From Acinetobacter pittii (lineage in GTDB: Bacteria > Pseudomonadota > Gammaproteobacteria > Pseudomonadales > Moraxellaceae), in assembly GCF_034064985.1 (NCBI RefSeq), contig NZ_CP139249.1:3472001-3536000 (forward strand): a DNA stretch of 64,000 nt, given 5' to 3'. The notes under the pieces were generated by a model, which saw nothing but the letters and a program-made list of their open reading frames with translations, made no database searches and was not told the origin of the DNA. The position numbers and the translations under genes were made by a program. Numbering within the stretch: the stretch's first letter is position 1; each line of letters begins with the position of its first letter. Below are positions 20,679 to 29,876 of the stretch, in pieces.

Positions 20679-22442
20679 TTAACGAACTAACCGATTAACT
20701 TTTTGAACTAAACCACTTTTTCGTGTCGTACGAACTGTAAATGCCTGTAATAAAGCCTCTTGGTCAACTAAAAGACTGACTACCTTCTTAGCTCGTGTAA
20801 TCGCAGTGTAAATAAGTTCTTGGCTTAATAAGTTCTTTGCAGCCTGATCAAGAACAACAGCAGTATGTGTAAATTCAGACCCTTGTGATTTATGAATTGT
20901 TAAGGCAAAAGCACTTTGAATGCTTTTAGGCAATCGATTTGCAGCGACCCATTTATTCAAACTTGGGAAATATACTTCAAACTGCTGTGGCTGAGTTCTA
21001 TGTTCAAAACACAAACCAATGTCTCCATTTGAAATACCGAGTTGATAATCGTTATAGGTCATCATTACCGGACGGCCCACATACCACCCTCCGACAGTCA
21101 CGATTGATAACTGTTGCTGTATCCAACGCTGCGCATATTGGTTTAACTGCTGCAACCCAAACGGGCCATGACGAACAGCCGTTAAAATACGGTAGTCATC
21201 AAATGCTTTTACTACATTTTGGATCTGTTCAATCGAGCGCTCTTCCTGCAAATAGTTCTTTAGACTTTGTATATACCCTTGGAAACCGAGCATTAGCTTT
21301 TGATAATAAAGATCTAGGTCTAATTGATTCCCTTCTGGTAAATATTCAAGCTGAACTACATCGGGCATATCTGTTTGTAGAAGTATAGGCTTTAATTCTG
21401 AAGCTTGAACAATATCAATTTCAAACCGCTGTAAAACCTCTACATGATCTTGTTGATGGGTTTGCGCCTGAATAAATCTAGCAACTTGCCCAATCAGTGC
21501 CCCTTCAGCGAAACGGCGACTGGTTTGTAATTGTACCCTGTTGTCAGCCAATGCCTGTATTTGTTGCAAATCTGCAAGTACCGCCCCGACATCAACGGAA
21601 GCGAGTTGATTTGCATCTCCTAATAAGATAATTCGACAAGACTCGGGCACAGCTTCAAATAATAACGTTGCCAGATTTAAATCCAGCATAGAAGCTTCAT
21701 CCACGACAATAACATCATAAGGCAAAGGTTGTTTTTGATTAAACCGTGGTGTTTGGCTATGTCCCATCCCTAATAAGCGGTGAATCGTTTGTGTTCCCTG
21801 ATTCCTTAGCTCTTCACTCATTAATCCAGATTCAAGCAATTTAGGGTCGTTAAACGAGTTCTGTAAAGCCTCTTGCATGCGCTGTGCTGCTTTACCTGTT
21901 GGAGCAGCCATCGCTACACGAATATGCGGAATTGCCTGGCTCAGCACAGCAATAATACGTGCCAGCGTATAAGTCTTACCTGTACCCGGCCCACCCGTAA
22001 TAATACTCAAGCTTTGCCGAGCAACCATCTGCAAAGCTGCCTGTTGATGAGGATCGATGAGTAGGTCCAGATAGTCTTCACAAGCTACGGGTTGAATTAA
22101 CTGTTGCTTTAATCGACAAATTTGTTCTGCAAGTCGTTGCTCTAGGTGCCAATATCGGTATAATGCCAACCCCTGCTCATCGTAGACGCACGGCGCAACT
22201 TTTGAAGTTGCTTGATCGGCAGATATAGCAAGCTGACCAAGTGCTGCAATTTGCTCTGAACAGATATCGATACAACTATCGCCTTGTAAGCTCGCTTCAA
22301 TAAGCTGCTGCAAGTAAGAAGTGGCTTCTGACACTTGCGATTGTTCAGTAAATGGAGCCTGATTTAAGAAGCTACTCCATGTTGTTAACCAGCTTAAATC
22401 GGCTTGTTCAGGGCTATTTAGGTTGTCCACACACTTATCCAC
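20679..22442 (-). CDS. recD: Exonuclease V alpha subunit, 5'-3' helicase RecD
   Basis: RecD is the fast 5'-3' motor of RecBCD, which processes double-strand breaks for recombination and degrades foreign linear DNA. Its 587 residues show Walker A IITGGPGTGKTYTLARI near residue 150, Walker B VVDEASMLD and the C-terminal motif FALTIHKSQGSEFTHTAVVL with LIYTAITRAK. The start is a GTG at 22442, directly after an in-frame TAG and with GGAA seven bases upstream. Unlike the recC-recB junction, recB and recD are 96 bp apart, and that gap carries a promoter and six DnaA-box-like repeats, so recD may have its own control. Confidence 0.95.
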   Translation of the reverse strand: MDKCVDNLNSPEQADLSWLTTWSSFLNQAPFTEQSQVSEATSYLQQLIEASLQGDSCIDICSEQIAALGQLAISADQATSKVAPCVYDEQGLALYRYWHLEQRLAEQICRLKQQLIQPVACEDYLDLLIDPHQQAALQMVARQSLSIITGGPGTGKTYTLARIIAVLSQAIPHIRVAMAAPTGKAAQRMQEALQNSFNDPKLLESGLMSEELRNQGTQTIHRLLGMGHSQTPRFNQKQPLPYDVIVVDEASMLDLNLATLLFEAVPESCRIILLGDANQLASVDVGAVLADLQQIQALADNRVQLQTSRRFAEGALIGQVARFIQAQTHQQDHVEVLQRFEIDIVQASELKPILLQTDMPDVVQLEYLPEGNQLDLDLYYQKLMLGFQGYIQSLKNYLQEERSIEQIQNVVKAFDDYRILTAVRHGPFGLQQLNQYAQRWIQQQLSIVTVGGWYVGRPVMMTYNDYQLGISNGDIGLCFEHRTQPQQFEVYFPSLNKWVAANRLPKSIQSAFALTIHKSQGSEFTHTAVVLDQAAKNLLSQELIYTAITRAKKVVSLLVDQEALLQAFTVRTTRKSGLVQKVNRLVR

Positions 22443-22491
22443 CTAGTTTTCCACACGCTTGTCCACATGGTTATAGACAGGCTTATCCACA
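22423..22491. repeat. Six tandem 12-bp DnaA-box-like repeats
   Basis: Nine-base units start at 22423, 22435, 22447, 22459, 22471 and 22483, spaced exactly 12 bp: TTGTCCACA, TTATCCACC, TTTTCCACA, TTGTCCACA, TTATAGACA and TTATCCACA. The last is the exact DnaA-box consensus and four others differ from it by one base. All point the same way on the plus strand. They span the recD start codon, its ribosome site and the promoter upstream. Confidence 0.85.
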
Positions 22492-22497
22492 TGTCAA
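22470..22497 (-). promoter_or_regulatory. Sigma-70 promoter for recD inside the DnaA-box array
   Basis: On the minus strand a perfect -35 TTGACA (22497-22492) and a -10 TATAAC (22475-22470) are separated by 16 bases. The start of transcription would be near 22463, about 20 bases before the recD GTG. The exact DnaA box fills part of the spacer, and the deviant fifth repeat supplies the -10. Confidence 0.7.
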
Positions 22498-22538
22498 GTA
22501 TTTGTTAATCTTCAAATTACGCATTTTATCAGCATTTT

Positions 22539-25500
22539 TCATGCTATTTTATCCTCAGCAAAATACCCCAAAATGGCATCAAGACGAAGAATAAACTCGA
22601 CGCTAGGTTCCCAATAATAATGCCCCTGCTCCGCTTCACCATTCATACCACGTAAATAAAGATAAGTTGCCCCACCTAAATGTTGCTCAATTTGGTAATC
22701 CTGCATTTTGACTTGCAAATAACGATGTAATGCAACGAGATATAAACCTGCCTGTAGCCAGTAACTTGCTAAAGACATGCTTTGGGCAATGCTATCGCTA
22801 CGATAATCTGCAAGATCATCCCCTAAGTAATTACTTTTATAATCGGCAATGTGGTAACGATGACCATCAAAATAAACCAAATCGATAGAACCATTAAGGT
22901 AACGCGCTGAACGAGCTTCAAGCAGTTCTGGCATATGCAAACCATACTCAGCGAAGAGTTGCTGAATACGTGTCATCGCTAAAACCCGATCTGAAAGTGC
23001 CAAATAAAAAGGAAACTCTGACAAATACTGCTCTTGTTGGAGCTGATTTAGCCGGAAACCTTGATAAAGCGGTGTTCGCAAAATATCTTTCAACCAGTCT
23101 GCAACTGACTGGTAAAGCAGGCTCTCGGCGTCCTCTTGCTCTGGGAAGCTCTCGTTATATTTATTAAGTAAATCTTGCCAAAGGCCGCTATAGTCATTTT
23201 TAAAACGACGACGTATTTCTATGATCCACTCATCTGAACATTGAAAATCGATATGCTCAAATATTTCATGTAAGAAATTACCGGCAAGCGTCCCTCTAGG
23301 AAAATTATTCTTTATCCAGTCAATCGGCTGAGCACTGTTTGCTTCAGCAGTGTTAATTAAGTCTAACTCATCTTCTGCTAATACAGCATCATTGCTCTGA
23401 CTGGCCAATAAATCTATGCCAGCCTTATGTTTTAAATGCTGTGCCAAGTAACTGAAACTGGTTTTCCCTCTCGAATAAAAACGTTGTTCAGGAAACCGTT
23501 TTGCTTGTATTTCAATAACACTGGTTTGCTTGGTTACATGAATTGCGTGTGGAATCTGTTCCAAAACCATTTCATCCGTACAACAACGGTGTTGAAAAGG
23601 CTCAGCTCTATTTTTCCAAAATGCGAGTCCTGATACCGATTTACCATCAATATCTTGTAGGACAGCATAGACGCGGTGGCTTGCTCGCGTTAAAGCGACA
23701 TACCAAAGTCGATTCTGTTCAGCGAGCGCTCGTTCTTCGTGCTGCTTAAGTTCTATTTCATTCAAATAAGTCTTGTCAGCAATCGCAACGACACGTTGAG
23801 TCAAAGTCTGGTTTGAGTCCGGTTGGACTACATCTTGGGTCGAAAAATTGAGTGTTTTATTATTTTCTCGAAAGGGCTTATCTGCACCTAATAAAAATAC
23901 AATCTTAAATTCCAGCCCTTTTGACTGGTGAATTGTCATGAGCTGAACACCAGCTTCGCTCGATAATTTACGCTCTAACTCCCAATCACGGTCAAGAGGA
24001 GAACGCAACTGTTTGAGATACCAGTGATAAAGGTTCTGAGCACCTGAGTATTTCTCACTGTGCTGACTCAGAATTTCAGTTAAATGACGCAAGTTCACCA
24101 CAACCCGTTCATTATCTTTACTTTGAGCTGCAACCAAATTTTGCCATATATCAAACTGGATGAGGCATTGTTGCCAAGCCACTAAAAAGCCTTGAGCGGA
24201 CCACAATTCTCTAATCGTGTCAAAACCAGACATAAATCGGCTTAACCCTTCGGCTGTCTGCTCAAGCTGCAATAGTTGCTTTAAATCCATAGCAAATAGA
24301 CGGCTAATTAAAGCTCGCTTCACTTTTGCCTCATCGTAAGGATGAAGTATGGCGGTCAGCAAAGCCCCCACGTCTTGAGCAATCGTACAATCGAAAACAC
24401 TTCGTTTTGATGGCCTATTAACCCGAATTCCTAAACGTTCTAGCTCAAATTGAACTTTATCCAGCCCATCATGATTACGAGACAATACTGCAATATCATC
24501 TTCGTTTAAGGTTTGAGTCTGAGCATCTTTTTGAAAATATAGTTGTCCAGCATGTGACTGGTTGAGTAGATCTCGAATCTTCCAAGCAACTTGCTGAGCC
24601 TCTGTTTCTTTATCTTTGAGCATTAACCAGCGCAAAGGGTGAGGATTATGATTGTTCTGCTCAATCAGCACAGGATGAGACCGAGTGCCTGCTCGAATTG
24701 GGTCATATTGAACTTCTTCACCAAAGTCGATTTGTCTTTGAAATAAGGCATCGACCACTTCAACCAGATCAGCAACTGAACGATGGTTATGAATTAACTT
24801 ATATTCACGACCATGTTTGGCTTGAATATCTTTATAGGCATTTAAGAAGGTGAGCATATCCCCACCGCGGAAACCGTAAATCGCCTGTTTACGGTCGCCC
24901 ACCATAATCATGCAACCTTTTTTGTAGCGCTCTGGATGGCGCCAAATGCTCGCCAGCATATCGTCTTGATCTTGGTTGGTATCCTGAAATTCATCAACCA
25001 AAATTAAGGGATATCGAGCCTGCACAAATACAGCAAAACGTTGCCCCTGCTCACCTTTTAAAGCTTCAGAAAGTGTACGAATTTGCTGAGAAAAAGTAGT
25101 CTCACCTTTATTTTGTAAAACCTGTGGTAAGCGTTTTTTAACCTCCACACATAAATAGGCTTTTAAATAAATATGAAGCTGGTCGAACTGCTCGGCGTAG
25201 TTTTTCAGCACACCAAATAGCTGTTGAATCTGTTGAATACAAGGATGCTGATAGAATCCATCTGAAATTTCAGCAGGACATTTCTTGAAAACTTTCTGAT
25301 CGGCAAGTTGACCTAAAAACTTAAAAACAAGCTCACGTTGTGCAGTCAAAGACCCATCAAAAACCAAAATGCTGTCGCTTTGCGTTAGAACTTGTAAAAG
25401 CTGCGGTAAACACTCGCTAAATAATTTGTTAAACGCCCCATTCCGAAATATTGTGCCGCTCACATGTTTATAGTGCTCGCCATCAAGCTGGTAATAGTTC

Positions 25501-26237
25501 TCTAAAAGGCTTAAGTCAATTTCTGTTGCTAACTGTTTGAGCTGTGCAAGTTGTTCAAATTGAATGGTTGGTTTTTCAGGAAGCTTAAAATGAGCCGAAC
25601 TAAAATTAAGTGAGTCTTCAACCAGTTTAACAAAACTATCAACACTCTTAAGCTCACCTGCCAAATACAATGCATCAATCACGGTTTGAGGTTGAGACTG
25701 TATCCATTCACGTAAAACATCATGAATCAGTTGTCGGCTATAGGTTTTGGCATCATCGGTAATTTGAGCACGTTCAATTTTTCCGCTCTCAAAAGCAAAC
25801 TCACGTAATAGTTTTTGACTAAAGCTATCGAGTGTCCCGACAAATAACTCGTCTAATTGATCTATAACCAGTTTTAAACGTTCACACGCATAGGCAATAC
25901 GCGTCGCAAAATGCTTTAGAATATGCTGGAGTAATAAGTCAGATTCTTGCTCGGCCTGCGTAAGTAACTCTTGTTCCGTAAAACTACGCTTGGCATCTAA
26001 ATAACGATAAGTTTCGACCAAACGGGCACGAATACGGCTTTTTAACTCGGCAGCGGCTGCACGGGTAAACGTGGTCGCAATGACTTGTCTAGGCAAGTAT
26101 TTTTCAAGAAAGATACGGACCATCAAACTTGATAAGGTATAAGTTTTTCCTGTACCTGCCGAAGCTTCAATTAAGTGTAAGCCACTAAATTCAATATCAA
26201 TAATAGGTTGATAAGACACCTGTACTCTTGAGTTCAT
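22539..26237 (-). CDS. recB: Exonuclease V beta subunit, helicase-nuclease RecB
   Basis: The protein has 1232 residues, near the family norm. RecB carries the 3'-5' SF1 helicase (Walker A IEASAGTGKTYTLSS near residue 25; ILVDEFQDTNQDQ near 415; IHQSKGLEFKIVFLLG near 740) and a C-terminal nuclease domain with the metal-binding triad region LVYFDGHRYHIADYKSNYLG near 1120, where Asp and Lys of the DYK motif match the E. coli catalytic residues. It also loads RecA at Chi. The recC stop lies three bases before the recB ATG, so translation is coupled. Confidence 0.97.
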   Translation of the reverse strand: MNSRVQVSYQPIIDIEFSGLHLIEASAGTGKTYTLSSLMVRIFLEKYLPRQVIATTFTRAAAAELKSRIRARLVETYRYLDAKRSFTEQELLTQAEQESDLLLQHILKHFATRIAYACERLKLVIDQLDELFVGTLDSFSQKLLREFAFESGKIERAQITDDAKTYSRQLIHDVLREWIQSQPQTVIDALYLAGELKSVDSFVKLVEDSLNFSSAHFKLPEKPTIQFEQLAQLKQLATEIDLSLLENYYQLDGEHYKHVSGTIFRNGAFNKLFSECLPQLLQVLTQSDSILVFDGSLTAQRELVFKFLGQLADQKVFKKCPAEISDGFYQHPCIQQIQQLFGVLKNYAEQFDQLHIYLKAYLCVEVKKRLPQVLQNKGETTFSQQIRTLSEALKGEQGQRFAVFVQARYPLILVDEFQDTNQDQDDMLASIWRHPERYKKGCMIMVGDRKQAIYGFRGGDMLTFLNAYKDIQAKHGREYKLIHNHRSVADLVEVVDALFQRQIDFGEEVQYDPIRAGTRSHPVLIEQNNHNPHPLRWLMLKDKETEAQQVAWKIRDLLNQSHAGQLYFQKDAQTQTLNEDDIAVLSRNHDGLDKVQFELERLGIRVNRPSKRSVFDCTIAQDVGALLTAILHPYDEAKVKRALISRLFAMDLKQLLQLEQTAEGLSRFMSGFDTIRELWSAQGFLVAWQQCLIQFDIWQNLVAAQSKDNERVVVNLRHLTEILSQHSEKYSGAQNLYHWYLKQLRSPLDRDWELERKLSSEAGVQLMTIHQSKGLEFKIVFLLGADKPFRENNKTLNFSTQDVVQPDSNQTLTQRVVAIADKTYLNEIELKQHEERALAEQNRLWYVALTRASHRVYAVLQDIDGKSVSGLAFWKNRAEPFQHRCCTDEMVLEQIPHAIHVTKQTSVIEIQAKRFPEQRFYSRGKTSFSYLAQHLKHKAGIDLLASQSNDAVLAEDELDLINTAEANSAQPIDWIKNNFPRGTLAGNFLHEIFEHIDFQCSDEWIIEIRRRFKNDYSGLWQDLLNKYNESFPEQEDAESLLYQSVADWLKDILRTPLYQGFRLNQLQQEQYLSEFPFYLALSDRVLAMTRIQQLFAEYGLHMPELLEARSARYLNGSIDLVYFDGHRYHIADYKSNYLGDDLADYRSDSIAQSMSLASYWLQAGLYLVALHRYLQVKMQDYQIEQHLGGATYLYLRGMNGEAEQGHYYWEPSVEFILRLDAILGYFAEDKIA

Positions 26238-26240
26238 GCC

Positions 26241-29200
26241 TTACTCCGAATGTTGAAATTGAAAAACCGGATGATACAAATCATAGGCAAACTCATCACA
26301 AGCATGTTGAAGCAAAGCTTGCGCATCTTGTTCTTGCAAAATAAAGCTCCAGTCTTGATGCAACTTGCAAGCTTCATTTTGAGTCATATCCATTGTGGTA
26401 AATGACCCTGTCTCATTCCAGTATTTTAACAGCTCTGTATAGCTCTTCTCATCCAGTTTTGCTTTTTCTGTCTGATTTGTTGTTTCCCACTGATATGCTT
26501 TAGCTTTTTCTAACGGCTTTAATAATAAAGCGGCTGGTAGAACCAAAGGTTGTTGCTGTGCATGGCGCCAGATTTTAAACCATGGCTGTAAATATTGCCG
26601 AGCTTGCTCAGAACTTATGCCACTACAAATCACAGTTTGATCGCTAAAAACCACAATACGGCGTTTTTCAGTTCCTGCACTTCCCTCATTTAAGTAAGCT
26701 AACCAGAGTAGATATTCTAACCAGACTTTAGCGCGTCTTTTTGCGCGAGCGCTTGAAGGCTCCATACTCACCCAGTCCCGAGTTTCAGACTTCGGAACGG
26801 TAATATTCATATGAAGCTGTTTAGCAATTCGCCAAATACGCTGAGTTGTTTGTGTCACTGCTGGTGCATAATGGTTAAGGCGTTCAAGTAAACATTCTTG
26901 CTCAAAAACACCTTGTTGCCATGCGCTATATTTGACTTTACCGACAGGCAACTGATCAATTAATACTTCAGGTTGTGCTTGCTGTTCAGATTGTTGTAAA
27001 AAATGTCGAATCGCATAGCGCCCTAAACCATCTAATAATAAAGGTTCATTTTGGTCGAGCACTCCGACACTTCCTAAGTTTTCTACCCCTAAAGTTTTCA
27101 AATATAATCGTGCAGGGAATGTTACATCCTGTATCCACTGCTGGCTTTCTAAAACCAGTATGTCAGGTATTTGTAGCGGATAGGTCGTGTTCGCCCAAGG
27201 CTGACGGTTTCCTGAGACTTGCTGAATTTGTGTAGCGACCTTAAACCAGTGATCTTGATAACGAATAACACGCTTCTCTACAGTAAAACCTTTCGGGTCA
27301 AAGGGCTGTAAATCATGGAAGTGATGGAGTTGTTTTAACTGTGAAGGTATCTCAATCCCTTCAACAACTATATTTTCAGGTTCACCATCTTCAGCTTTCA
27401 CAATCAAGGCAAGATGTTCACGGAACTCTTGAAGAATACTGGAAGGTTCGCGTACCTCGCCATCGTTCACATCAAAGCCGTTATAAAACAGCCATAAATT
27501 TTCTTGGGCTAATAATAAAGCATCTAAAAAAGCACCTTGATCATCTTCAAGTCGAGAGCGGTCACCTAACTGTTGGCGTAGTGCATCCATTAAATCAAAT
27601 GGAACGTGGGTATCACGGTTTGGAAATTGCCCTGCATCAAGATTTAACATGACCTTTAAGCGATAAGGTAGCGGCCGAATATGCCCAATTTGGGCAAAGG
27701 TAATTTGTCCTGTCGGTTCAGCTTGTGCACTTTGGCTTTCTAAAGTCCGTTGAATTTCTTCAATAATATAAGGCAGAGGCAAGGTAATTTTGCGCAAAGT
27801 TCCTGTTTCTGCCTCGGCGTAATAACTTGCGAGCGTTAACATTCGTTCTTGTTTTTTAACTATTTCCCGCACAGCTTTTAAAGCAGCAACACCGACCTGC
27901 TCAAATTCAACAATATCTTTGCCTAGCACTTGGAGCCAATATTCAACAGTATAGACTTTTCCTTGTTCGTGCAGAGTTAGCCAATCACGGCGCTCATTCA
28001 AATCTTGATAAATCTGAATGAGTGTACCAATCAGCTCGAAATCGCTCGGTTGGACTTTGGCATAACTCAACACTTGATTGAACCTTGCATGCACAGGCAC
28101 AGCAATGCCAAGGGCCAATCGCTCTAAGGCAAATTTAAAGCTATATCGATAATCATCATCACCGTCACACAAACTGCGCTTGAGATGCTCTGCATCAAGC
28201 CCTCGTTTAAAGCCAGCATCGGCAAGTAAATTTAAAATTCGCTCAACCTGAACATACTCAAGTTCGTAACGTTGCTGGGTCGCATGCAAGCTTAACCAGT
28301 CAGCAAAATCATCAAAGCTAAAACGGCCCTGCATCAGCTGAATACGCCCAATCACGGCACGCCAAGCATTAAGTGCATCAAGTGAGGCAACACCTGCGAT
28401 TTTCACAGGCAAATGTACACCCTGCTCAGTAGCAGTAGCGGGAAATACACTTCGAATTAAAGGCTCAATATCAGCCAAATTAGGAACTAAAACTAAAATA
28501 TCGTTTGGACGGCGCGGCTGCTCATGTGGTTTAGCCAACCAACAGATTAATTGCTCTTTTAATACTTCAAGCTGACGTAAAGTTGAATGACAAACATGAA
28601 TCTGAATCGAGTCATCGTCTGGGGCAAGCTCATATTGTTTCGCTTGTGGTTCTACCAAATGTAAAATATCTGACTGAACTTTACCGAGTAAACTTTCTGG
28701 AAAATCATCTACAAAAGCATCCACCCACTTACCTTCTTCGCCCGTGGACAAATTTGATAATAGCGAAAAGTGGTCGCGGGCTTGCTTACCCAATCTGGTT
28801 AAAAGCGGATGTCTGGACTCACGCGCTTCAGCATTAAAATTGAGTGTGAATTTATTAAAAAACTCACTAATTTCAGTGTCTGTAGCCTTCGGATTTTGCG
28901 CAATAAAACGCTCTTTTACCCTTAAGTCATAACGTTGCTTCCAGAGTGGATCGACACTATCGGCCCAATATTCTTGTGAAGGGTTATAATGCAAAATCAG
29001 CACATCAACGTATTGCCCTAAACGGCGCAAAAACTGTAATTGGCTTGGCGGTAAATCTAACAACGTAAAGATCACCACTTGATTAGGTAATCTTGAAATA
29101 GCACGCTTACTGCGGTCCGGATGATCTAATTCTTGCCAAAACAACTCATCGATTTGCTGCATCTGCACAAAATCATCATGAAAATGTTGTTGCCATAACC

Positions 29201-29876
29201 AACGCTGCCAACGTTCTAACTCTTGCGTTTGATGCAATGCAAAAGCAGTCACTTCTTCATCTTTTTGTACAATATATTTTTCAATATCCAGTGATCGGCC
29301 CTGCCCCCAAGCAGACAACCAGTTTTCCGGACAAGTACAACTATTTTCACAACCACGCTGGCACTGTCCACGATAAATCATATAGTTACTAAATAAATCA
29401 GCAACCTGCTCAGCGACCCAATACAGCATTTTTTGTTTTTTTAATTGTTTATCTATGCCTTGTTCGAGACGATCTGCGCTGTCATAAATACGCTGAACAA
29501 TAGAATGTAAAGGATGCGACGTATCGATGCTCATCGTGTCAGGTTGAATAAATTCGTGCAAAGCCTGATGCACCCGCCATTTAAAAATCAAACGGGGGAT
29601 GTTCGCTTTACGAACCTGCTCTTTATGCGCAGTTAAAACTTGCTGATAGGCAAACCATTGGAAACCTCGTACCCGTTGATGAAACTGGTAATTGGCACTC
29701 ATGCCTTGCTGTTCTGCAAGTTTTTGTATCAGCCACTGCTCGACCGCAGGACTTGGAACAATAAAATGTTGGGTTTTCAAAACCTGTAATGGATGCGTTG
29801 AAGCTTGAGATGTAGACGCCAATACACCTTGCAACAACACATCAATACGTTGACTTTGAATAACATGGATCCCCAT
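26241..29876 (-). CDS. recC: Exonuclease V gamma subunit RecC
   Basis: RecC holds the RecBCD complex together, splits the duplex and recognises Chi with an inactive helicase-like channel. The 1211 residues match the family (E. coli 1122) with some extension. It is recognised from overall length, position before recB and conserved parts such as TFAQIGHIRPLPYRLKVMLN near residue 730 and LDAGQFPNRD. A four-cysteine cluster CQRGCENSCTC near residue 175-185 is notable, possibly a metal site. It is the first gene of the recC-recB-recD operon; no gene such as ptrA lies inside it, unlike in E. coli. Confidence 0.95.
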   Translation of the reverse strand: MGIHVIQSQRIDVLLQGVLASTSQASTHPLQVLKTQHFIVPSPAVEQWLIQKLAEQQGMSANYQFHQRVRGFQWFAYQQVLTAHKEQVRKANIPRLIFKWRVHQALHEFIQPDTMSIDTSHPLHSIVQRIYDSADRLEQGIDKQLKKQKMLYWVAEQVADLFSNYMIYRGQCQRGCENSCTCPENWLSAWGQGRSLDIEKYIVQKDEEVTAFALHQTQELERWQRWLWQQHFHDDFVQMQQIDELFWQELDHPDRSKRAISRLPNQVVIFTLLDLPPSQLQFLRRLGQYVDVLILHYNPSQEYWADSVDPLWKQRYDLRVKERFIAQNPKATDTEISEFFNKFTLNFNAEARESRHPLLTRLGKQARDHFSLLSNLSTGEEGKWVDAFVDDFPESLLGKVQSDILHLVEPQAKQYELAPDDDSIQIHVCHSTLRQLEVLKEQLICWLAKPHEQPRRPNDILVLVPNLADIEPLIRSVFPATATEQGVHLPVKIAGVASLDALNAWRAVIGRIQLMQGRFSFDDFADWLSLHATQQRYELEYVQVERILNLLADAGFKRGLDAEHLKRSLCDGDDDYRYSFKFALERLALGIAVPVHARFNQVLSYAKVQPSDFELIGTLIQIYQDLNERRDWLTLHEQGKVYTVEYWLQVLGKDIVEFEQVGVAALKAVREIVKKQERMLTLASYYAEAETGTLRKITLPLPYIIEEIQRTLESQSAQAEPTGQITFAQIGHIRPLPYRLKVMLNLDAGQFPNRDTHVPFDLMDALRQQLGDRSRLEDDQGAFLDALLLAQENLWLFYNGFDVNDGEVREPSSILQEFREHLALIVKAEDGEPENIVVEGIEIPSQLKQLHHFHDLQPFDPKGFTVEKRVIRYQDHWFKVATQIQQVSGNRQPWANTTYPLQIPDILVLESQQWIQDVTFPARLYLKTLGVENLGSVGVLDQNEPLLLDGLGRYAIRHFLQQSEQQAQPEVLIDQLPVGKVKYSAWQQGVFEQECLLERLNHYAPAVTQTTQRIWRIAKQLHMNITVPKSETRDWVSMEPSSARAKRRAKVWLEYLLWLAYLNEGSAGTEKRRIVVFSDQTVICSGISSEQARQYLQPWFKIWRHAQQQPLVLPAALLLKPLEKAKAYQWETTNQTEKAKLDEKSYTELLKYWNETGSFTTMDMTQNEACKLHQDWSFILQEQDAQALLQHACDEFAYDLYHPVFQFQHSE

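What the first reader, a model, noticed from the sequence alone, without database searches (positions are those of the whole stretch)
22423..22497. Six-unit DnaA-box array superimposed on a recD promoter
Six 9-mers related to TTATCCACA occur at exact 12-bp intervals in one orientation, running from inside recD across its start codon and ribosome site into a promoter (perfect TTGACA, 16-bp spacer, TATAAC). The exact DnaA consensus box occupies the spacer next to the -35. The one strongly deviating repeat (TTATAGACA) is precisely the one that creates the -10. DnaA-ATP could therefore shut off recD separately from recCB, changing the RecBC:RecBCD ratio with replication state, or the array could titrate DnaA in the manner of datA. 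I know of no description of DnaA control of recD. On the minus strand the 12-bp period keeps one reading frame (GTG-GA-), broken by a TAG just before the recD GTG.
Basis: partly seen in the sequence, partly recalled or inferred. Interest (0 to 1): 0.78.

Follow-up and report, generated by a model that had tools for sequence, protein, structure and literature searches.

The report
DnaA docking ladder inside recBCD operon
Between the genes for two DNA-repair subunits (recB and recD), nearly all Acinetobacter genomes examined keep a ladder of three or more look-alike sites for the replication-starter protein DnaA at exactly 12-base steps, and most have a twin ladder at a second chromosomal place; the ladders would likely soak up or switch off DnaA after replication starts, as a known E. 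coli locus does.

Summary
Six TTATCCACA-like units lie at exact 12-bp steps (22423-22491). Of 141 distinct recB-recD junctions, 138 have a run of 3-7 such units; no other period from 9 to 18 bp exceeded 3. A second ladder of 5-6 units lies downstream of rpe in 79 of 97 Acinetobacter genomes. Both have an IHF-consensus-like site at a fixed distance: 7/9 or better in 126 of 138 recD junctions, exact in 34 of 77 rpe ladders at one position. E. coli DnaA prefers boxes 2-3 bp apart, which fits this spacing; 12-bp runs also occur at some Acinetobacter oriCs and beside dnaA in sister genera. In 22 chromosomes the recD ladder lies 8.6-13.7% from oriC. Instead, two neighbouring units hold recD's Shine-Dalgarno and start codon in 134 of 138. 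Most likely this is a datA-like DnaA-IHF locus that titrates or inactivates ATP-DnaA; control of recD is possible but secondary. Binding of DnaA or IHF is untested. My literature searches found no description.

The parts
22423..22431 (+). unit 1, TTGTCCACA; on the minus strand it holds the likely recD start GTG (22430-22428)
22435..22443 (+). unit 2, TTATCCACC; overlaps the recD Shine-Dalgarno AGGTGG (22444-22439, minus strand)
22447..22455 (+). unit 3, TTTTCCACA
22459..22467 (+). unit 4, TTGTCCACA
22471..22479 (+). unit 5, TTATAGACA, weak unit
   Evidence: TTATAAACA-type units also in the rpe ladder
22483..22491 (+). unit 6, exact consensus TTATCCACA; likely anchor box
   Evidence: exact in 113 and within one mismatch in 135 of 138 distinct junctions
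22495..22507 (-). IHF-consensus-like element TAACAAATACTTG (8 of 9) at offset -16 from the anchor box
   Evidence: 7/9 or better at this offset in 126 of 138 junctions; coordinates
20679..22430 (-). recD with the start codon proposed here (583 aa)
   Evidence: NCBIfam TIGR01447; start
22539..26237 (-). recB
   Evidence: NCBIfam TIGR00609 (613 bits, below its cut-off of 696)
26241..29876 (-). recC
   Evidence: NCBIfam TIGR01450 (452 bits, below its cut-off of 583)

Best explanation
The 12-bp ladder in the recB-recD gap is a genus-conserved tandem array of DnaA-box-like sites, and it would likely be filled by an ATP-DnaA oligomer nucleated at the strong end box with help from IHF, so that it titrates or inactivates DnaA the way E. 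coli datA does. Shown by sequence: exact 12-bp spacing, one orientation, a strong box at the recB-proximal end, an IHF-consensus-like site at a fixed distance, a twin ladder with its own IHF-consensus site downstream of rpe, a narrow range of distances from oriC, and recD's Shine-Dalgarno and start codon written into two neighbouring units. Inferred: that DnaA and IHF bind, that a DnaA oligomer forms, and that the locus, copied about a tenth of the chromosome after initiation, lowers free or ATP-bound DnaA. As a predicted side effect, a filled ladder could hinder read-through from recCB into recD, and recCB transcription could clear the site.
For: 138 of 141 distinct junctions have 3-7 units at 12 bp; other periods never exceed 3; 94 of 96 genus genomes read. 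Second ladder of 5-6 units after rpe in 79 of 97 genomes, flanks 0.0-0.8 bits against mostly 1-2 in box columns. IHF-like site at -16 in 126 of 138; exact ATCAANNNNTTR at +83 in 34 of 77 rpe ladders, control windows 12 of 2313. Same-spacing runs beside dnaA in 16 of 30 loci fetched from sister genera and at 5 of 11 Acinetobacter oriC stretches not chosen for the pattern. E. coli DnaA binds box pairs 2 or 3 bp apart and loses much binding with one more base pair (PMC11317965, abstract and passages). Distance from dnaA 8.6-13.7% in 22 chromosomes. IhfA, Hda and DnaA encoded.
Against: No binding or phenotype was measured. The recD IHF match usually has A for T at its third base; exact in only 9 of 138, and 12 of 138 score below 7/9. 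40 of 77 rpe ladders have no exact IHF consensus in the stretch searched. 57 of 141 junctions have only 3 units, two of which also serve as ribosome-binding site and start. 18 of 97 genomes have fewer than 5 units after rpe and two lost the recB-recD spacer. Distance from oriC may be gene-order constraint. Titration and hydrolysis cannot be told apart by sequence.
Confidence: 0.6

Rival explanations
1. DnaA bound to the ladder mainly controls recD: it blocks read-through from recCB, or a local promoter, so that the RecBC:RecBCD ratio follows replication state.
For: The ladder stays at recB-recD in 94 of 96 genus genomes read and in two genomes of another genus, and two units hold recD's Shine-Dalgarno and start codon in 134 of 138 junctions. 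In the window itself -35 and -10 hexamers overlap the boxes.
Against: Promoter hexamers both at 5/6 or better in only 8 of 138. A ladder of the same design lies after rpe with no gene start attached. Two genomes lost the whole spacer and keep recD.
Confidence: 0.25
2. The repeats are a neutral 12-bp tandem duplication, or a conserved ribosome-binding region that resembles DnaA boxes by accident.
For: Unit number varies from 3 to 7 in 12-bp steps, as slippage would give, and two units are needed as Shine-Dalgarno and start.
Against: Box columns carry 1.53-1.79 bits on average in each unit, spacers 0.47-1.11, and units keep their own variants across species. An independent ladder lies after rpe. 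346 pattern hits against 6 control hits.
Confidence: 0.05
3. The repeat acts in the RNA, as a row of GGA motifs (for instance for CsrA) over recD's Shine-Dalgarno.
For: Most units read GGA in the recD sense, one inside the Shine-Dalgarno; both ladders lie downstream of a gene in the same sense. CsrA's preference for GGA is recalled.
Against: No excess RNA structure: mean z 0.03, none below -2, in 40 junctions with 5 or more units. The units fit the whole 9-mer DnaA consensus, and same-spacing runs lie at oriC.
Confidence: 0.05

Closest known systems
E. coli datA
   Same: DnaA-box cluster with one IHF site outside oriC, about 10 of 100 map minutes from oriC (94.6 against 84.6; PMC4585315, passages), downstream of a transcribed operon whose read-through affects IHF binding (PMC10950094, abstract).
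   Different: datA has five boxes and lies after glyVXY. Here the boxes form a strict same-orientation 12-bp ladder between recB and recD, part of it recD's ribosome-binding site, with a second ladder after rpe. Hydrolysis of DnaA-bound ATP was not tested.
E. coli double DnaA boxes (PMC11317965)
   Same: Boxes 2-3 bp apart bound as a unit (abstract and passages); a ladder of six is five overlapping doubles.
   Different: Pairs, not ladders of up to 7 units; the passages I saw do not name recB or recD.
Low-affinity arrays of oriC
   Same: Strong box anchoring close-set weak boxes, as R4 and C1 at 3 bp (PMC4451416, passages).
   Different: Not at dnaA; opening and helicase loading not implied.
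DARS1 and DARS2
   Same: DnaA boxes outside oriC, DARS2 with IHF (PMC4585315, passages).
   Different: All boxes here point one way; that DARS cores hold an opposed box is recalled.
Bacillus DnaA-box clusters outside oriC (recalled)
   Same: Conserved box clusters away from oriC thought to hold DnaA.
   Different: Unrelated loci; not compared here.

Membership tests
datA-type locus | Cluster of DnaA boxes outside oriC | tested here: met
   3-7 units in 138 of 141 distinct junctions; by sequence only
datA-type locus | IHF-binding site within the cluster | tested here: inconclusive
   Consensus-like at fixed offset in 126 of 138 but exact in 9 of 138; binding not tested
datA-type locus | Stimulates hydrolysis of DnaA-bound ATP | not testable with these tools
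   needs biochemistry
datA-type locus | Counterpart of E. coli datA by neighbourhood (after glyVXY) | tested here: not met
   neighbours are recB and recD; so it may work like datA but is not filed as datA
DnaA-regulated promoter of recD | Conserved promoter overlapping the boxes | tested here: not met
   both hexamers at 5/6 or better in 8 of 138; present only in close relatives
Chromosomal origin (oriC) | Box cluster adjacent to dnaA | tested here: not met
   dnaA at C1:1 with boxes just upstream; the ladder is 384 kb away
DnaA-binding double box | Two boxes 2-3 bp apart | tested here: met
   3-bp gaps throughout; rule from PMC11317965; binding not tested
DARS-type locus | Core with boxes in opposed orientation (recalled) | tested here: not met
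   all six units on the + strand

The most novel reading that the evidence does not exclude
Acinetobacter carries two dedicated DnaA-IHF checkpoint loci built as strict 12-bp DnaA ladders. One is embedded in the recBCD operon so that its end units are recD's ribosome-binding site and start codon, which ties the state of the replication initiator to the RecBC:RecBCD ratio while operon read-through resets the DnaA sink.
Probability: 0.3. Interest if true: 0.88.

Novelty: new variant of a known kind. Interest (0 to 1): 0.7.

Why it matters
Extra-origin DnaA sinks are best known from E. coli and Bacillus (Bacillus recalled). This gives two precise, deletable candidate loci in Acinetobacter. The type strain of the transformable laboratory species A. 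baylyi has 5 units and an exact IHF consensus at recB-recD. It makes testable how this genus limits re-initiation, suggests a physical link between initiator state and the RecBCD recombination enzyme, and offers a natural series (3 to 7 units, one spacing) for the study of DnaA cooperativity.

Tried and rejected
Coding-repeat reading: the 12-bp period keeps one frame, but the conserved recD start lies in the unit nearest recD in most junctions, so the rest of the ladder is upstream of it, and only 2 of 138 ladders begin before recB's stop.

RNA-structure reading: no excess folding in the 40 junctions tried.

Enrichment of loose box pairs in the own genome: none clear.

Acinetobacter oriC as a site of the same ladders: mixed. 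Of 14 dnaA-side stretches 8 have 3 or more units (up to 3 mismatches each), but 3 of those were fetched because they matched the pattern; the window's own oriC shows only a weak pair.

Literature: searches list no report of these ladders; most subscription papers are not held, and a 2010 review of Acinetobacter replication was not held.

Limits of counts. Runs of 7 can include a chance unit inside recD at the 3-mismatch limit. 240 loci were reduced to 141 distinct junctions before counting; the 3 with a run of 1 were dropped. Of 99 genus genomes, 3 junctions were not read: G030 (no recD found, 65% complete), G076 and G080. G076 has recD 22 kb from dnaA and no three-box hit. Control windows include coding DNA. 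Six of the ten left out give 291-427 kb (recD) and 609-800 kb (rpe) by direct subtraction; G047 and G161 lacked a contig length, G097 has dnaA and recD on different contigs, G076 has no ladder. A working note of mine misread the -35 of some relatives as TTTGGC; one search shows TTGGCA, and this report uses. The genomes were chosen because they had a match, and 30 of its 38 matches became loci.

Full report
What is there. The window lies in a 3.89-Mb genome with dnaA at base 1 of contig C1. The best RecD match among named records is Acinetobacter pittii ANC 4050, 97% (records of the window's own genome may be left out there). recC, recB and recD run on the minus strand. Between recB's stop and recD, six TTATCCACA-like 9-mers lie at exact 12-bp steps, all on the plus strand, the exact consensus at the recB-proximal end.

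Is it more than chance. A three-box pattern at 12-bp spacing gave 346 hits in 90 of 99 genus genomes against 6 hits in 4 genomes for the reversed control. Loose two-box pairs are not clearly enriched in the own genome. I read the recB-recD junction in 240 loci, 141 of them distinct: 57 have 3 units, 4 have 4, 25 have 5, 38 have 6, 14 have 7, and 3 have 1. At periods 9 to 18 other than 12 no junction exceeded 3. By genome, the junction was read in 96 of 99, and 94 have at least 3 units. In the two that do not (G001, G089), recD begins at recB's stop and the spacer is gone. Of 80 named loci, 77 have at least 3 units.

A second ladder. Searching with the window's ladder also hit other places. One is the stretch just downstream of rpe, ribulose-phosphate 3-epimerase. 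There 79 of 97 genomes have 5-6 units at 12 bp on one strand; other periods and the other strand gave runs of at most 2. By a slightly different rule (strong first unit, at least 5 units, within 420 nt of rpe) 80 of 97 qualify, 77 distinct; columns before the strong box carry 0.0-0.8 bits, box columns mostly 1-2. In the window's genome the ladder lies between the rpe stop and the next gene. It has no evident coding or ribosome-binding role, so the ladder itself seems to be what is kept.

Why DnaA. The strong unit is the exact DnaA consensus. In other genera of the family the same pattern lies beside dnaA in 16 of 30 fetched loci; 5 loci from two genomes lie at recB-recD, 1 at nrdA, and 8 were not placed (genomes chosen for having a match). 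In the wider order 36 of 293 genomes have a match, the family included. Of 11 Acinetobacter oriC stretches not chosen for the pattern, 5 have 3 or more units at 12 bp. In E. coli, DnaA prefers box pairs 2 or 3 bp apart, and one extra base pair causes a large loss of binding (PMC11317965, abstract and passages); 9 plus 3 is 12. A box pair of this spacing also precedes nrdA in the window's genome.

The IHF-like element. Aligned on the strong box, 126 of 138 junctions match WATCAANNNNTTR at 7 or more of 9 at offset -16; the mean score there is 7.5, against 2.4-4.9 at the other offsets from -30 to -13. The informative columns form a block of six, then four weaker ones, then TTR, the shape of the IHF consensus (consensus as quoted in PMC4585315). 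The third base is usually A, not T; only 9 of 138 are exact. A. baylyi's junction is exact. The rpe ladder has the exact consensus at +83 in 34 of 77, at +95 in 3, and none in 40 within +60 to +140; control windows, coding DNA included, hit in 12 of 2313. The window's genome encodes IhfA and Hda above the curated cut-offs; IhfB was not searched.

recD's start. In 134 of 138 junctions a Shine-Dalgarno stands 7-8 nt before an in-frame start codon in the next unit; the start is GTG in 132. The usual unit, TGAGGATAA in the recD sense, differs from TGTGGATAA by the base that makes GAGG. In the window this gives AGGTGG at 22444-22439 and GTG at 22430. So two units have a second job, which explains part of their conservation and is the main caution for the 57 three-unit junctions.

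Position. In 22 chromosomes the recD ladder is 296-461 kb from dnaA (mean 10.5%, range 8.6-13.7%), and the rpe ladder, in 21 of them, 566-772 kb (mean 19.3%, range 15.1-22.0%). In these all boxes point toward oriC, also where the two ladders lie on opposite arms. Six further genomes give 291-427 kb and 609-800 kb. E. coli datA is at 94.6 min with oriC at 84.6 (PMC4585315, passages). Gene-order constraint could explain the distance.

How it likely works (inferred). A DnaA molecule on the strong box nucleates ATP-DnaA along the weaker units, and IHF bends the DNA at the end. After initiation the fork soon doubles the locus, which adds sinks, or a datA-like complex that speeds ATP hydrolysis. In E. 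coli, read-through transcription lowers IHF binding at datA (PMC10950094, abstract), so recCB transcription could do the same here; a filled ladder could in turn slow read-through into recD. I hold DnaA binding at about 0.9, the sink or inactivation role at 0.6, and an effect on recD at about 0.3.

Against it. Nothing was measured; the recD IHF match is imperfect; 18 of 97 genomes have fewer than 5 units after rpe; titration and hydrolysis cannot be told apart by sequence. My searches list no report of these ladders, in a library that lacks most subscription papers.

Noticed in passing
L104, L105 (G001, G089): These two genomes lost the whole recB-recD spacer, ladder and IHF-like site together, and also lack the rpe ladder, hinting at joint loss.
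   Followed up: partly
L432:3788-3965 (genome G125): The recB-recD junction holds a run of 8 units and, nearby, a further run of 3, the longest ladder seen.
   Followed up: no
L126:4678-4717, L121:5047-5079, L122:8636-8655 (own genome): Clusters of two or three strong DnaA boxes in mixed orientation and not at 12-bp steps; other candidate DnaA loci.
   Followed up: no
L125:5732-5752 (own genome): A 12-bp-spaced box pair, TTATCCACA and TTATCTATA, upstream of nrdA; fits a DnaA-controlled ribonucleotide reductase gene.
   Followed up: partly
rpe ladder, e.g. L322: A conserved AT-rich stretch (AATAAACAA-like) between the ladder and the IHF-consensus site.
   Followed up: no
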